NCBI RefSeq assembly: GCF_000018885.1
Contig: NC_010168.1
Span: 124,001 to 188,000, forward strand
Direction of reading: 5' to 3'
Length of the DNA: 64,000 bases
Source of the DNA: Renibacterium salmoninarum ATCC 33209
Lineage (GTDB): Bacteria; Actinomycetota; Actinomycetes; Actinomycetales; Micrococcaceae
The position numbers and the translations under genes were made by a program. Below, one piece after another: positions 54,521 through 59,108 of this stretch; the stretch's first letter is position 1, and every line of letters starts with the position of its first letter. A model generated the notes under the pieces. That model searched no databases. It was not told where the DNA came from and saw nothing but the letters and a program-made list of their open reading frames with translations.

Positions 54521-55768
54521 ATGACTAACTACCCGGCGACGGTCGAAACTGAAGCATCCAGTCCTCAGGCGGCGCGCACTCCAGGACATTTACCGCACGC
54601 AATCGGCTTCTGGGTAGTTGCGGTCGCCTACGCAGCTTTGAGCGCATTTGGTACTGCGCTGACGCCGTTGTGGCCGCTGTATCAGGAGCGGGACGGCTTT
54701 GGCGCGCTGATGGTTACGGTTGCTTTCGCGGCGCTGGTTGCTGGTATCGCTGCCGCACTCGGCGCAGCCGGGCACCTTTCTGACCGGTTTGGCCGGCGTC
54801 GAATCATCGTGCCGGCGCTCATCGTGGGCATTGCGGCGACCTTTGTGCTGATCGCCTGGCCACAACTCCCCGGCCTCCTCATCGGCCGGTTCCTGACCGG
54901 CGTCGCCATCGGTCTGATGTCTGCGACCGCAACCACCTATCTTGCTGATTTAGATCAACAAGCCCGGCCCCATATCAATGCGCCCCTTCGGCCCGGCATG
55001 GTTGCTGCTGGGGCAAGTCTTGGCGGCTTGGCACTGGGGCCGATCATTGCGGGAGCCACTGCTGAATGGTTACCGGATGCACTTTTGTTGCCCTATGTAG
55101 TCTTTGGTCTCATTCTGCTGGGAATTTTAGTTTTTGTGCTCGTCACGCCGGAAACCGTGGATATCAGTGACCAACCCGAATTTAGGGTCCGTCGCGTACA
55201 TATTCAGGATGGAAAGCGTACGATCTTCATCGGTGCATCAGTTTTAGGCTTCACGGCGTTTGGTGTGACTGGGCTTTTTTCTGCGCTTGGCTCGCCAATA
55301 ATCCGTTATGACCTCGGCATCCGAGATGTGTTTCTTGGTGGCCTAGGCACCTTCGCGGTCTGTGCCGCCTCGGCTGCGGCCCAATTCACTGCTGGGCGGC
55401 TAAGACCCAAGACACTTTCCGGCTTAGGCCTGATTTTTTATTTGCTGGGGTTTGCGCTGACGCTTTTTGCGATTGCGCACCATTCGTTGGGCGTGTTTCT
55501 TGCTGCAGCCGCCGTGGTGGGCGCGGGCGCCGGGCTAACCTTTAAGGCCGGACTCAGCCAAGCCGCGATGTCAGCGGTACCGGCTTCCCGTGCCGGCGTG
55601 CTCTCGATCTTCTTTATTGCAGCCTTTCTGGGCATGGGAATCTCCGCCATTGTGCTGGGTTTGATGGTTGGCGCCTTGGGTACCTTTGCGTCGATGCTGG
55701 TCATCGCTTGCGTACTGACGGCCGTCTTGGTTAGCGGAATCGTGCTCACAAGTCGGCACCGGAGTTAG
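54521..55768 (+). CDS. MFS transporter
   Basis: 415 residues with twelve membrane segments. Motif A is GHLSDRFGRRR and the fifth segment has RPGMVAAGASLGGLALGPII. The central loop (TPETVDISDQPEFRVRRVHI) is short. The drug/sugar specificity cannot be read. It is divergent from the LysR gene and probably under its control. Translation may begin at ATG 54521 (MTNYPATVETEASS), although the Shine-Dalgarno is poor. Confidence 0.87.
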   Translation: MTNYPATVETEASSPQAARTPGHLPHAIGFWVVAVAYAALSAFGTALTPLWPLYQERDGFGALMVTVAFAALVAGIAAALGAAGHLSDRFGRRRIIVPALIVGIAATFVLIAWPQLPGLLIGRFLTGVAIGLMSATATTYLADLDQQARPHINAPLRPGMVAAGASLGGLALGPIIAGATAEWLPDALLLPYVVFGLILLGILVFVLVTPETVDISDQPEFRVRRVHIQDGKRTIFIGASVLGFTAFGVTGLFSALGSPIIRYDLGIRDVFLGGLGTFAVCAASAAAQFTAGRLRPKTLSGLGLIFYLLGFALTLFAIAHHSLGVFLAAAAVVGAGAGLTFKAGLSQAAMSAVPASRAGVLSIFFIAAFLGMGISAIVLGLMVGALGTFASMLVIACVLTAVLVSGIVLTSRHRS

Positions 55769-55854
55769 CTCGTTCCCGGTGCTGTGTCGGTGAGCCTTCC
55801 GATGGGGTTTGCGCTTAACAGAAGCCGGGGTTGCCCTGAATAAGCAAGGTGCCA

Positions 55855-56012
55855 CTCGATAGCTGAGGCTCCTTCGCGGACACAAGCCAGCGATCCCAAA
55901 CGTCGAGAGACGCCCCGGATCAGGACAGACCACCCCGGCCTAAGGGGTGATCCCGATTGGCTCCCAGCGGATTCCGCCGGGTTACGACGCGAAGTGCCAA
56001 AGGTCTGACGAG
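55855..56012 (+). promoter_or_regulatory. M-box (ykoK) magnesium riboswitch upstream of mgtA
   Basis: The hallmark blocks of the M-box aptamer occur in order: GCTGAGGCTCC with GGACACAAGCC, then GTCGAGAGACGCC, AGGACAGACC with a CACCCC/GGGGTG stem, GATTGGCTCCC, and GTGCCAAAGGTCTGACGAG. CTCG at 55855 and CGAG at 56009-56012 can close the P1 stem. M-box RNAs bind Mg2+ and switch off expression of magnesium transporters when Mg2+ is high. The 86 bases from 55769 to 55854 hold nothing else recognisable and should include the promoter. Confidence 0.88.
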
Positions 56013-56053
56013 GAGGGGCAATCATCGGCAAGAAGCCGAACCTCTCTTGTTTT
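56009..56053 (+). terminator. terminator-like expression platform of the M-box
   Basis: CGGC-AAGAA-GCCG is flanked by GAGG...CCTC and followed by TTGTTTT. The left side shares bases with the 3' strand of the aptamer P1 stem, as needed for a switch. The outer stem is uneven, so strength is uncertain. Confidence 0.55.
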
Positions 56054-56121
56054 GCGGTCATGAATCTGTCATTGAATCCGCAAGAAACATCGCGCCGCGC
56101 CGAACGAGAGGGAGTTGAACC

Positions 56122-56172
56122 ATGAGTTCTGGTCATCAACCCTGTCCCGTTCGCCGTCGACCAATCAACTGA
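56122..56172 (+). CDS. mgtA leader peptide, 16 codons, Pro/Arg-rich
   Basis: ATG 56122 follows GAGAGGGAG with a 7-base gap, the best ribosome site in the region. The peptide is MSSGHQPCPVRRRPIN and stops at TGA 56170-56172. It lies between two terminator-like hairpins in the mgtA leader. Salmonella mgtA has a leader peptide MgtL with prolines followed by three arginines, whose translation couples Mg2+ and proline levels to transcription; here PCPVRRRP shows the same Pro-x-Pro...Arg-Arg-Arg pattern. Homology is not claimed; similar selection is the inference. A 6-bp hairpin (TTCGCG/CGCGAA, 56180-56195) follows at once. Confidence 0.65.
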   Translation: MSSGHQPCPVRRRPIN

Positions 56173-56234
56173 TTTTCAGTTCGCGTTTTCGCGAATAGAT
56201 TGCGCCGTCGCGTTCGGGACATAACATCGCCACC

Positions 56235-56254
56235 GCCGAAATTTCGGCATTTTT
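56235..56254 (+). terminator. second terminator-like hairpin in the mgtA leader
   Basis: GCCGAAATTTCGGC is a perfect palindrome followed by ATTTTT, about 60 bases after the leader peptide stop and 104 bases before the mgtA start. The GC part of the stem is short (4 bp), so it may act only with a changed upstream fold. Confidence 0.5.
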
Positions 56255-56357
56255 CGCCGTATTCTGGCGTGCCCAAAATCAGTCGTGACCGGCCTTTGCG
56301 CGCCCAATTTCGGCTGCCTCGCACCCTTCGCTAGCCACAAATTTCAGGAGCAGTACC

Positions 56358-59108
56358 ATGCAGACCACATCACCTCGCACCCTTACTCCGCCGGGCACGC
56401 CGGCTCCCAACTCCGAGCAGAACGCGCAAAATCGCCGTCGTACCGCGAAAGCCGCTCGGCAAAATTCGCGACTCAAGGCGAAACTTGCGGAGCGTTCTGA
56501 ATCGATGGCGGTGGCGGCCGTCAAGCCCGCCGATCAGCTTCTGGAGCGCTTAGGTTCCGGAGTTAATGGGCTCGATCAGCTCAAAGTCCAAGTCCGCCAG
56601 GAGCGCTACGGCCGCAACGAGGTCAATCACGACCGGCCCGCGCGGGCCTGGTTGCAGTTGCTCTCAGAATTCAACAACCCGTTTGTGTTGATCTTGTGCT
56701 TCCTCGCCGTGGTGATGGCCTTCACCGATATTGTCTTTGCAGACCCAGAGGACGGCCCGTCCTTCAAAGGCGTTATCACTTTGGGCATCATGGTGCTGGT
56801 GTCGGTAGGTATGCGATTTTGGCAGGAATGCCGCTCGGGCAAAGCAGCTCAGGCTCTGCAATCAATGGTGCAGACGACGGCGGCAGTCACCCGGAAAAAT
56901 GACCTTGGCGAGCCAGTAACACGCGAGATTCCGATTGAAGACATCGTTCCGGGTGACCTGATTGAACTTGCCGCGGGGGACATGATCCCGGCCGATGTGC
57001 GCTTCTTGCGCACTAAAGATCTCCAGATCAACGAGGGCATGTTGACGGGGGAGTCGCTGCCGAATGAGAAGTCCTCGGTAACCACGCAAGAGATCACTGC
57101 GAGCAATTTACTAGAAGCCGAAAGCCTTGGATTTATGGGCACCTCAGTGATTTCCGGCAGCGGTACTGCTGTTGTGGTGCACACCGGATCCGAGACCTAC
57201 TTCGGCGCAATGAGCGCGCAGCTCGCCGGCAAGCGACCCGAGACCAGCTTTGATCAAGGGGTGAAGAAGGTCAGCTTCTTGCTGATTAAGTTCATGCTCG
57301 TCATGGTGCCGTTGGTCTTCATCGTCAACGGAATCACTAAAGATTGGACTAGCGCGTTCCTTTTCGGTCTGGTAACCGCCGTCGGTTTGACCCCAGAAAT
57401 GCTGCCAATGATTGTCACAGCAAACCTTGCCCGCGGTGCAGTGAAGATGTCTAAGCATCAAGTAATTGTGAAGCGGCTCAACGCGATCCAAAACCTGGGC
57501 GCGATGGACGTGCTCTGCACTGATAAAACGGGCACGCTCACTGAAGACCGGATCGTGCTGGAGCGGCACCTGGACGTCAACGGAACCTCAAGCCTCAAAG
57601 TACTGCGGATGGCTGCGGCCAACTCTCGGTTTCAGACGGGTCTGCGCAATCTGCTTGATCGGGCGGTGCTCGATGCAGCTGGGCCGGAGATCTTGGCTGA
57701 GATGGATGGCGCATACCGGCTCATTGACGAGGTCCCTTTTGACTTCTCGCGCCGTCGGATGACGGTAGTGCTCGACGGCGGAACCGCGCCGCTGATGATC
57801 ACTAAGGGCGCTGTGGAGGAGGTGCTGGAAGTTTGCACCACCGTTATGGTGAAAGGCCACCCGCACCCGCTGACCGCAGAACGCCGGGCCGAGCTAAGCG
57901 AGCTGGTCGCGGGGAAAAACTCGGAAGGGATGCGAGTACTGGCGCTTGCTACCGCGCCAGGATCTCAGCGTGATGATTACTCGGTGGCAGATGAAAAAGA
58001 AATGACGCTGCTTGGCTTCTTGTCCTTCCTGGATCCGCCCAAGGCGTCCGCCGCCTCGGCAATCAAGGCCTTACGCCAGCATGGAACCGCGGTGAAAGTC
58101 ATCACCGGCGACAACGAGTTGGTCGCTCGGACGGTGTGCAAGCAAGTTGGCATTGATACCAATGTTCCTGGCTCGCTACTTACCGGAGCTGAGGTGGAAG
58201 CGCTAGATGATGCACAGCTATCCGCGGCAGTGGAAGGTGCCGACGTCTTCGCCAAGGTTAACCCGATGCAGAAAGCGCGCATTGTGGAACAGCTCCAAGC
58301 GAACGGCCATACCGTCGGATTTATGGGCGATGGCATCAATGATGCCGCTGCCTTGCGTACCGCCGATGTTGGTATATCAGTGGACACTGCCGTTGATATT
58401 GCACGGGAATCTGCGGATATCATCTTGCTGCAAAAAGACTTGATGGTCTTAGAAGCCGGTATTCAAGAGGGTCGCCGGACCTTTGGCAACATCATCAAGT
58501 ACATCAAGATGACCGCGAGCTCCAACTTTGGCAACATGTTTTCAGTCCTGGTGGCCTCGGCCTTACTACCGTTCATCCCGATGATTCCAGTGGTAGTGCT
58601 GTTGCAGAACCTGGTCTACGACCTCTCGATGCTTTCGTTGCCCTGGGACAATGTGGACAAAGAATATGTGGAGAAGCCGCAAAAGTGGGAGACCAAGGGT
58701 CTGGCGAGGTTTATGGTGACCATCGGGCCAATCTCCTCGGTCTTTGACCTGACGACATTCGCGCTGATGTGGTTCGTCTTCGGTGCCAATTCGCCGGATC
58801 AAGCGGCCCTTTTCCAGTCCGGTTGGTTTATTGAATCGCTGATCTCGCAGACGCTGATTGTGCACATGATCCGCACTGGCAAGATTCCGTTTGTACAGTC
58901 CCGTGCTTCCTGGCCGGTACTGCTGCTGACCGGTTCCGCCTGTGTTTTCGCTCTGGTGTTGCCGTTCAGCGGCTTCGGTCAGTCGCTTGGCCTGGTCGCC
59001 TTGCCCTGGACCTACTTCCCGTGGCTGGTCGGTACTTTGGCGGCGTACTGCTTGCTGACTCAAGGCATCAAGACGCTGTACATCCGCCGTTTCGGTCGCT
59101 GGCTGTAA
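56358..59108 (+). CDS. mgtA: magnesium-translocating P-type ATPase
   Basis: 916 residues; AGGAG lies 7 bases before ATG 56358. The first 50 residues are Pro- and Arg-rich (LTPPGTPAPNSEQ, then NRRRTAKAARQN). P-type motifs: MLTGESLPNEKS (actuator TGES), CTDKTGTLTED with the phosphorylated Asp near 388, VPFDFSRRRMTVV in the nucleotide domain, and GDGINDAAALRTADVGI. Membrane segment 4 reads AVGLTPEMLPMIV, and segment 6 NLVYDLSMLSLPWDNVD, both typical of MgtA/MgtB (P3B class). It imports Mg2+ into the cytoplasm. The M-box and the leader peptide before it suggest induction at low Mg2+. Confidence 0.95.
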   Translation: MQTTSPRTLTPPGTPAPNSEQNAQNRRRTAKAARQNSRLKAKLAERSESMAVAAVKPADQLLERLGSGVNGLDQLKVQVRQERYGRNEVNHDRPARAWLQLLSEFNNPFVLILCFLAVVMAFTDIVFADPEDGPSFKGVITLGIMVLVSVGMRFWQECRSGKAAQALQSMVQTTAAVTRKNDLGEPVTREIPIEDIVPGDLIELAAGDMIPADVRFLRTKDLQINEGMLTGESLPNEKSSVTTQEITASNLLEAESLGFMGTSVISGSGTAVVVHTGSETYFGAMSAQLAGKRPETSFDQGVKKVSFLLIKFMLVMVPLVFIVNGITKDWTSAFLFGLVTAVGLTPEMLPMIVTANLARGAVKMSKHQVIVKRLNAIQNLGAMDVLCTDKTGTLTEDRIVLERHLDVNGTSSLKVLRMAAANSRFQTGLRNLLDRAVLDAAGPEILAEMDGAYRLIDEVPFDFSRRRMTVVLDGGTAPLMITKGAVEEVLEVCTTVMVKGHPHPLTAERRAELSELVAGKNSEGMRVLALATAPGSQRDDYSVADEKEMTLLGFLSFLDPPKASAASAIKALRQHGTAVKVITGDNELVARTVCKQVGIDTNVPGSLLTGAEVEALDDAQLSAAVEGADVFAKVNPMQKARIVEQLQANGHTVGFMGDGINDAAALRTADVGISVDTAVDIARESADIILLQKDLMVLEAGIQEGRRTFGNIIKYIKMTASSNFGNMFSVLVASALLPFIPMIPVVVLLQNLVYDLSMLSLPWDNVDKEYVEKPQKWETKGLARFMVTIGPISSVFDLTTFALMWFVFGANSPDQAALFQSGWFIESLISQTLIVHMIRTGKIPFVQSRASWPVLLLTGSACVFALVLPFSGFGQSLGLVALPWTYFPWLVGTLAAYCLLTQGIKTLYIRRFGRWL

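What the first reader, a model, noticed from the sequence alone, without database searches (positions are those of the whole stretch)
55855..56357. mgtA leader combines an M-box riboswitch with an MgtL-like Pro/Arg leader peptide
Seen: M-box hallmark blocks at 55855-56012, a hairpin with T-rich tail, then a 16-codon ORF (MSSGHQPCPVRRRPIN) with a near-ideal Shine-Dalgarno, a 6-bp hairpin right after its stop, and GCCGAAATTTCGGC-ATTTTT before mgtA. Known: Salmonella mgtA is controlled by its leader RNA and by translation of the proline-containing peptide MgtL; M-boxes control Mg2+ transporters in many bacteria. Inference: this actinobacterial mgtA uses both an aptamer and translation-coupled attenuation in series, with Pro codons or the RRR run as the sensor. 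I do not know of this pairing being described in this group.
Basis: partly seen in the sequence, partly recalled or inferred. Interest (0 to 1): 0.8.

Follow-up and report, generated by a model that had tools for sequence, protein, structure and literature searches.

The report
Magnesium riboswitch controlling a leader peptide
A magnesium-sensing RNA switch sits in front of a bacterial magnesium pump gene and is followed by a tiny conserved reading frame, an arrangement recently described in tuberculosis bacteria and here found in several other families of actinobacteria.

Summary
The M-box is real: RF00380, window 55848-56022, 115.5 bits, cut-off 44, upstream of an MgtA-type Mg2+ ATPase. The 16-codon ORF is real and its N-terminus is conserved. 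Of 92 M-box leaders from family and class samples, 65 have a short ORF with an 8-nt Shine-Dalgarno match, against 0.1 in shuffles. The N-terminus, roughly M-S-[S/P]-G-[D/H]-x-P-x-P, is under codon-level selection (pN/pS 0.30-0.39). It occurs in Micrococcaceae, mycobacteria and further actinomycete families, ahead of unrelated Mg2+ transporter genes.

The combination is not new in kind: PMC12810186 (2026) describes an M-box with a translational platform and conserved uORF in M. tuberculosis, but calls the peptide mycobacteria-specific. That now looks too narrow.

RRR is absent from 5 of 5 other same-genus uORFs and lies beyond a point where the window stops matching its nearest relative. The terminator-like hairpin is at chance level. 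The "hairpin with T-tail" is the SD1:anti-SD stem. Most likely the M-box gates uORF translation, which gates mgtA; how is not shown.

The parts
55848..56022 (+). M-box (ykoK-type) Mg2+ riboswitch aptamer
   Evidence: RF00380, 115.5 bits, E 2.7e-26, model 1-169 of 169
55830..56149 (+). Stretch shared with the leader of a same-genus NRAMP operon (G114), 90.6% identity over 320 nt, ending after uORF codon 9
   Evidence: blastn of window 55701-56700 against L220
56010..56018 (+). SD1-like GAGGAGGGG at the aptamer 3' end; GAGGGG (56013-56018) is the 3' strand of aptamer stem P1 and the proposed anti-anti-SD
   Evidence: P1 columns read from the cmscan alignment; invariant in the aligned relatives
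56013..56046 (+). Hairpin SD1:anti-SD (56013-56018 with 56041-56046; apical stem 56025-56029 with 56035-56039)
   Evidence: 7 sequences, 77 of 77 cells paired, 3 pairs changed on both sides, covariation 0.351 against 0.174 shuffled (0 of 500 as high) and at most 0.177 slid; single-sequence fold z -1.56
56041..56046 (+). Anti-SD CCTCTC, exact complement of GAGAGG at 56106-56111
   Evidence: sequence; generic duplex test across relatives shows no excess for anti-SD:SD2
56106..56114 (+). SD2 GAGAGGGAG of the uORF
   Evidence: sequence; 4-nt exact match to the ideal SD, spacing 7
56122..56172 (+). uORF, 16 codons, MSSGHQPCPVRRRPIN
   Evidence: N-terminus conserved across families
56095..56160 (+). 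Predicted hairpin of the SD2 region with codons of its own uORF
   Evidence: fold -28.7 kcal/mol for 56095-56180, z -2.61, 4 of 200 shuffles as good
56180..56195 (+). 6-bp hairpin after the uORF stop (not seen in three aligned relatives)
   Evidence: sequence, alignment
56235..56254 (+). Terminator-like GCCGAAATTTCGGC-ATTTTT (chance level, not seen in three aligned relatives)
56358..59108 (+). mgtA, Mg2+-translocating P-type ATPase, 916 aa
   Evidence: TIGR01524 1205.9 bits, cut-off 610.75; NF011702 1239.6 bits, cut-off 975

Best explanation
The mgtA leader is an M-box OFF-switch with a translational expression platform, whose first target is a conserved short leader ORF rather than mgtA itself. 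In high Mg2+ the aptamer closes P1, which uses SD1 (56013-56018). The anti-SD CCTCTC (56041-56046) is then free to mask SD2 (56106-56111), the uORF stays silent, and transcription of the untranslated stretch before mgtA ends early, probably by Rho. In low Mg2+ P1 opens, SD1 pairs with the anti-SD, SD2 is free, the uORF is translated and mgtA is expressed. Shown here: the aptamer; SD1 inside P1; covariation for the SD1:anti-SD hairpin (in its apical stem); conservation of the uORF, its SD in most leaders, and its N-terminal codons; its tie to the M-box rather than to one downstream gene. Inferred from the M. tuberculosis work and not tested here: Mg2+ response, masking of SD2, Rho, and how uORF translation is passed on to mgtA.
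For: Aptamer 115.5 bits. SD1:anti-SD hairpin: 77 of 77 cells paired in 7 sequences, covariation 0.351, 0 of 500 shuffles as high, slid controls lower. The same stretch folds better than shuffles in the mycobacterial group, mean z -2.28, 20 of 26 below -1.65. uORF: a choice by SD alone gives a short ORF with an SD match of 6 nt or more in 72 of 92 leaders against 1.4 expected, 8 nt in 65 against 0.1. Codon phase: amino-acid identity between groups 0.305 against 0.164 after column shuffling, 0 of 400 as high; pN/pS 0.30 (own genus), 0.36 (g7), 0.39 (mycobacterial group). A search for the uORF start pattern alone gave 18 hits in 394 genomes, none for the reversed pattern; 17 of 18 lie just downstream of an RF00380 hit, and the 18th follows what looks by eye like a decayed M-box. 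Downstream genes differ: MgtA, NRAMP, MgtE, CorA, ABC permease, MgtC. Experimental precedent: PMC12810186 (parts 1-4 of 6 of the text read).
Against: A generic duplex test finds no excess of anti-SD:SD2 pairing over shuffles (mean z 0.02 over 64 leaders; own genus -0.08, n=4; 3 of 64 in the best 5%, about the chance number) and a weak excess at most for SD1 with the region (mean z -0.38, 4 of 64; g7 -1.54). In the own genus and g7 the SD1 hairpin folds only slightly better than shuffles (mean z -0.92, 0 of 4; -0.79, 1 of 13), and SD2 is predicted to pair with its own coding sequence (fraction 0.69 and 0.89), so SD2 may be masked in both states. In one search two of five measures are not unusual against shuffles (pairs with changes on both sides, 65 of 500 as high; pair types, 300 of 500); the compensated pairs are all in the apical stem; and the tested structure came from a consensus fold of the same sequences, which favours it over slid versions. 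The same kind of consensus fold did not recover the hairpin for all Micrococcaceae leaders or for mycobacterial leaders. The window's SD2 is weak. The main gene follows directly in 9 of 46 family leaders, so the uORF is not obligatory.
Confidence: 0.62

Rival explanations
1. The uORF peptide is itself a second Mg2+ or translation sensor: ribosomes pause or drop off in the conserved N-terminal region (D/H-x-P-x-P), in the manner of MgtL or MgtQ, and this decides transcription or translation of mgtA.
For: Selection on codons 2-9 with variable C-termini and lengths of 11-47 aa; Pro 7 and Pro 9 in all six own-genus uORFs; a rare codon nearly fixed, AGT in 44 of 48 Ser at codon 6 against 4.3% of Ser codons in downstream open frames. 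Precedents: MgtL (PMC11282234, passages), MgtQ (PMC8092293, outline only).
Against: The window peptide has no acidic residue; Pro 7 is present in only 40 of 79 short uORFs; RRR is not conserved; the fixed AGT does not hold in the own genus; no arrest motif was recognised.
Confidence: 0.15
2. The uORF encodes a small trans-acting peptide, co-regulated with Mg2+ transporters, such as a transporter subunit or regulator.
For: Peptide-level conservation. PMC12810186 reports a homologue outside an M-box context in M. tuberculosis and favours a peptide function.
Against: Main genes are unrelated transporters in different clades; mainly the first ~9 residues are conserved; the one copy without an RF00380 hit among the 18 looks by eye as if it follows an M-box remnant.
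Confidence: 0.13
3. An ordinary M-box with a transcriptional platform: the hairpin at 56013-56046 with its T-tail, or the one at 56235-56248, is an intrinsic terminator.
For: Hairpins followed by T-rich stretches are present in the window; B. subtilis ykoK precedent.
Against: The first hairpin competes with aptamer P1, so it would form at low Mg2+, the wrong polarity; its T-tail is not kept in three aligned relatives and the terminator scan does not list it. The second hairpin is at chance level (1 found, 1.0 expected) and not seen in the same three relatives.
Confidence: 0.08
4. The short ORF is a chance ORF.
For: Short ORFs are common; the window's own SD is weak.
Against: 72 of 92 against 1.4 expected for SD of 6 nt or more; codon-phase signal; a strict N-terminal pattern fits 40 of 78 uORFs against 0.005% of 22,159 other start codons (the pattern was written after seeing the peptides).
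Confidence: 0.02

Closest known systems
M. tuberculosis pe20 and rv1535 M-box leaders with uORF2 (Rv1805A), PMC12810186
   Same: M-box; SD1 at the aptamer 3' end; pyrimidine-rich anti-SD; SD2; conserved short uORF with Pro at position 7; main gene further downstream
   Different: Here the genome belongs to another actinobacterial family and the gene is mgtA; the uORF has 16 codons (24-29 in mycobacterial leaders seen here); SD2 is weaker and predicted to pair with its own codons; no evidence on Rho or Mg2+ response. The paper calls the peptide specific for mycobacteria; here it is found in other families too.
Salmonella/E. coli mgtA leader with MgtL
   Same: Short Pro-containing leader ORF upstream of mgtA in an Mg2+-responsive leader
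   Different: The enteric leader is a mechanistically distinct element, not an M-box (PMC4072509, passage); MgtL acts through EPDP, and its full translation lowers mgtA; here the window peptide has no acidic residue and the expected polarity is the opposite
B. subtilis ykoK (mgtE) M-box
   Same: Aptamer fold and class of regulated gene
   Different: ykoK uses an intrinsic terminator; no conserved one is supported here

Membership tests
M-box riboswitch (RF00380) | Covariance-model score above the gathering score over the whole model | tested here: met
   115.5 bits against 44, model 1-169 of 169
M-box riboswitch (RF00380) | Upstream of an Mg2+ transport gene | tested here: met
   mgtA, TIGR01524 1205.9 bits against 610.75
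M-box riboswitch (RF00380) | Mg2+-dependent folding and control | not testable with these tools
   needs in-line probing or reporters
Translational M-box with uORF (M. tuberculosis pe20 type) | SD1 within the aptamer 3' strand, able to pair with an anti-SD | tested here: met
   77 of 77 cells paired, 3 compensated pairs, all in the apical stem
Translational M-box with uORF (M. tuberculosis pe20 type) | Anti-SD can mask SD2 of the uORF | tested here: inconclusive
   exact 6-nt complement in the window; no excess over shuffles across 64 leaders
Translational M-box with uORF (M. tuberculosis pe20 type) | Conserved uORF with Pro at position 7 | tested here: met
   MSSGHQPCP in the window; conserved N-terminus across families
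Translational M-box with uORF (M. tuberculosis pe20 type) | Rho-dependent premature termination | not testable with these tools
   only composition seen: window 56173-56357 has 59 C and 43 G
MgtL-type leader peptide | N-terminal acidic-Pro destabilising motif (EPDP) | tested here: not met
   window peptide has no acidic residue; motif from PMC11282234 passages
MgtL-type leader peptide | Arg run of the peptide kept in relatives | tested here: not met
   RRR in 0 of 5 other same-genus uORFs; that MgtL carries such a run is recalled, not from a call
Transcriptional M-box (ykoK type) | Intrinsic terminator formed in the Mg2+-bound state | tested here: not met
   one terminator-like site, 1.0 expected, not seen in three aligned relatives

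The most novel reading that the evidence does not exclude
Two Mg2+ sensors in series across a bacterial class: the M-box decides whether ribosomes start on a conserved leader peptide, and the ribosome making its N-terminus (S-G-D/H-x-P-x-P, with near-fixed rare codons in most groups) is a second checkpoint that decides expression of whichever Mg2+ transporter lies downstream.
Probability: 0.14. Interest if true: 0.85.

Novelty: new member of a known kind. Interest (0 to 1): 0.6.

Why it matters
The one experimental study of M-box uORFs that my searches found (PMC12810186) treats the peptide as specific to mycobacteria and suggests that it may work with the PE20-PPE31 complex or be part of a transporter. 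Finding the same N-terminus behind M-boxes in Micrococcaceae and further actinomycete families, ahead of mgtA, NRAMP, mgtE and corA genes, points instead to a cis-acting leader peptide that belongs to the riboswitch. The question can now be tested in harmless actinobacteria. It also suggests that translational M-boxes may be common among the M-boxes of this class.

Tried and rejected
MgtL kinship: rejected as membership (no acidic residue; RRR not conserved). Terminator at 56235-56248: rejected (chance level). First hairpin as terminator: rejected on polarity and on the lost T-tail. Generic SD1/anti-SD/SD2 duplex test: mostly negative; the hairpin claim rests on covariation and on the mycobacterial fold scores. 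Consensus folds of all Micrococcaceae leaders together, or of mycobacterial leaders, did not recover that hairpin. Nucleotide differences show no excess at third codon positions (0.635, 0.55, 0.62), partly because of the fixed AGT codon. Outside the class the best-ranked candidate is a short ORF with an SD of 6 nt or more in 5 of 18 leaders, and in 2 of 11 leaders from other families of the order (my reading, which prints up to three candidates each); by eye none fits the strict motif. I first took the Renibacterium sp. MAG (L001) as a relative that lost the M-box; its contig begins inside an NRAMP gene, so the leader lies off the contig and that argument is withdrawn.

The L115 uORF was set by hand because of an SD tie. 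L147 and L148 were added by hand and L140, which reads 75 aa across a masked stretch, was counted as short. Genus groups were assigned by hand from the labels. L126 and L035 are the same leader. Of the 12 RF00380 aptamers that failed a crude motif check none was dropped, because all exceed the gathering score. 'Mycobacterial' for group f11/g49 is inferred from PE/PPE-like genes seen by eye; two named mycobacteria, L002 and L003, have the same kind of uORF. The identity of these uORFs with Rv1805A rests on position, Pro 7 and context, not on a sequence look-up. The organism name Renibacterium salmoninarum is recalled from the genome size.

Full report
What is there. The window lies in a 3,155,250-base single-contig genome, probably Renibacterium salmoninarum (name recalled from size). 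RF00380 matches window 55848-56022 with 115.5 bits over the whole model; a second M-box lies at C1:746842-747026, directly upstream of an MgtC-family gene. The gene at 56358-59108 is an MgtA-type Mg2+ ATPase. Between aptamer and mgtA lies the ORF at 56122-56172, MSSGHQPCPVRRRPIN.

Is the uORF more than chance? I collected all 46 M-box places listed for 295 family genomes (33 genomes with a match, the window's own included) and the 46 places, besides the own two, listed for 394 class genomes (26 with a match, own included). Without using any peptide motif, I scanned for start codons with a Shine-Dalgarno match after each aptamer. Of 92 leaders, 72 have a short ORF (8-50 aa) with an SD match of at least 6 nt against 1.4 expected from dinucleotide shuffles, and 65 have 8 nt against 0.1. 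Counting weaker SDs and the cases set by hand, 37 of 46 family leaders and 42 of 46 class leaders have a short uORF. In the other 9 family leaders the main gene comes directly: 5 MgtC-like (two checked in Pfam, L081 and L083; three by N-terminal likeness), 1 MgtE (L090) and 3 without a Pfam match (L099, L106, L114). In 4 of 46 class leaders, all in the mycobacterial group, a uORF-like stretch has no standard start codon.

Is the peptide conserved? The N-terminus is M-S-[S/P]-[G/S]-[D/H]-S-P in many groups: MSSGDSSPSPHTC in genus g7; MSSGHQPCP, MSSGHQPYP, MSSGDKPSP and MSSGHRPSP in the own genus; MSPGDSPYP in the mycobacterial group; MSSGSSPQP in family f24; MSPGHSPRL in f25. Some leaders have other N-termini, e.g. 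MKPGPHS, MKSRSPR, MDEGPDR or MRRRSSM. A strict pattern M[SPA][SPDC]G[DH], written after seeing the peptides, fits 40 of 78 uORFs against 0.005% of 22,159 other start codons. Amino-acid identity between groups over codons 2-9 is 0.305 against 0.164 when alignment columns are shuffled (0 of 400 as high), and pN/pS within groups is 0.30-0.39. These sequences are related, so the figures are descriptive. There is also nucleotide-level constraint: AGT makes up 44 of 48 Ser codons at codon 6, against 4.3% of 1,373 Ser codons in downstream open frames; this does not hold in the own genus, where codon 6 is CAA, AAA or AGA.

Does it belong to the M-box? A pattern for the uORF start alone, derived from the uORFs above but searched without regard to M-boxes, gave 18 hits in 394 genomes and none for the reversed pattern. 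Comparison with the places puts 17 of 18 directly downstream of an RF00380 hit. The 18th (L187) lies behind what looks by eye like a decayed M-box and ahead of a protein with ion-channel and TrkA-N domains. The main genes differ between clades: MgtA, NRAMP, MgtE, CorA, ABC permease, MgtC and PE/PPE-like proteins (by eye). So the uORF travels with the riboswitch, not with one transporter.

A same-genus comparison. In G114 the leader is followed by an NRAMP gene, a gene for a PRC/MgtE_N/CBS protein and then mgtA (domains shown on the L001 copy and on L116). The Renibacterium sp. MAG L001 shows the last two of these genes and part of the first before its contig ends. The window matches the G114 leader at 90.6% over 55830-56149, that is up to uORF codon 9, then shows no match to L220 until just before mgtA (matches resume at 56341 and 56423). 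No NRAMP relative was found in the window's genome (the tool warns that an empty answer alone shows little), and the best match of the PRC/MgtE_N/CBS protein there is only 31% identical, elsewhere. So the leader and mgtA probably came to lie side by side in this lineage by a rearrangement, or the two genes were inserted in the other; G026, G054 and Acaricomes also have mgtA directly behind the leader. Either way the Arg run lies beyond the shared part, which further weakens it as a functional element.

How it probably works. SD1 (56010-56018) is part of aptamer stem P1 and can instead pair with CCTCTC at 56041-56046. In 7 relatives (the window among them) all 77 cells of this hairpin pair, with 3 compensated pairs, all in the apical stem; covariation exceeds all 500 shuffles, although two of five measures do not stand out. 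CCTCTC is also the exact complement of GAGAGG in SD2. This is the SD1/anti-SD/SD2 layout that PMC12810186 describes and tests for the M. tuberculosis pe20 leader, with Rho-dependent termination (parts 1-4 of 6 read). The inferred order is: high Mg2+, P1 closed, anti-SD on SD2, uORF off, mgtA off; low Mg2+, the reverse. Against a simple copy of that model: a general duplex test shows no excess of anti-SD:SD2 pairing, and in the own genus and g7 SD2 is predicted to pair with its own codons. The region after the uORF is richer in C than in G in the own genus and g7 (0.33/0.25 and 0.44/0.27), hardly in the mycobacterial group (0.31/0.29), and not in f25, f27 or f11b, so Rho action is possible but not shown.

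The Arg run is not kept: 0 of 5 other same-genus uORFs. The terminator-like site is at chance level and not seen in three aligned relatives. MgtL resemblance is superficial: the window peptide lacks acidic residues, and expected polarity is reversed. The Shine-Dalgarno of the window is weak. None of the titles and abstracts listed in my ten searches reports it in Micrococcaceae; the library lacks most subscription journals.

Limits. No expression, Mg2+ or ribosome data exist here. Only 33 of 295 family genomes carry an M-box, so the system is patchy. Outside the class most M-box leaders lack such a uORF. By contrast Mycolicibacter icosiumassiliensis (L003) shows the same order M-box, uORF MSSGDSPGPNPP, mgtA.

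Noticed in passing
L081 (window genome C1:746842-747026): Second M-box of the same genome, directly upstream of an MgtC-family gene and without a uORF; same layout in L083, L085, L091, L092 of the genus.
   Followed up: partly
window 56150-56340 against L220 (reverse strand): A same-genus genome has NRAMP and PRC/MgtE_N/CBS genes between the M-box-uORF leader and mgtA; the window lacks both there and matches that genome only up to uORF codon 9 and again just before mgtA.
   Followed up: partly
uORF codons 6 and 8 in 64 unique leaders: Ser at codon 6 is almost always the rare codon AGT (44 of 48), and Tyr at codon 8 is always TAT (15 of 15); reason unknown.
   Followed up: partly
L187 1437-1520, reverse strand: uORF copy without an RF00380 hit, behind what looks like a decayed M-box, ahead of a protein with ion-channel and TrkA-N domains.
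   Followed up: partly
L099, L106, L114: M-box directly upstream of a 144-176 aa protein without a Pfam match.
   Followed up: partly
L088, L096, L103, L104, L147: M-box and uORF upstream of an ABC-type permease family (Pfam BPD_transp_1 for L088 and L147; the others by likeness); a possible unrecognised Mg2+-linked importer.
   Followed up: no
L153, L158, L166, L172: Mycobacterial M-box leaders whose uORF-like stretch lacks a standard start codon.
   Followed up: partly
L193, L195: Outside the class, M-box leaders with a 44-aa ORF starting MESDPG behind an 8-nt Shine-Dalgarno match; unrelated N-terminus, similar design.
   Followed up: no
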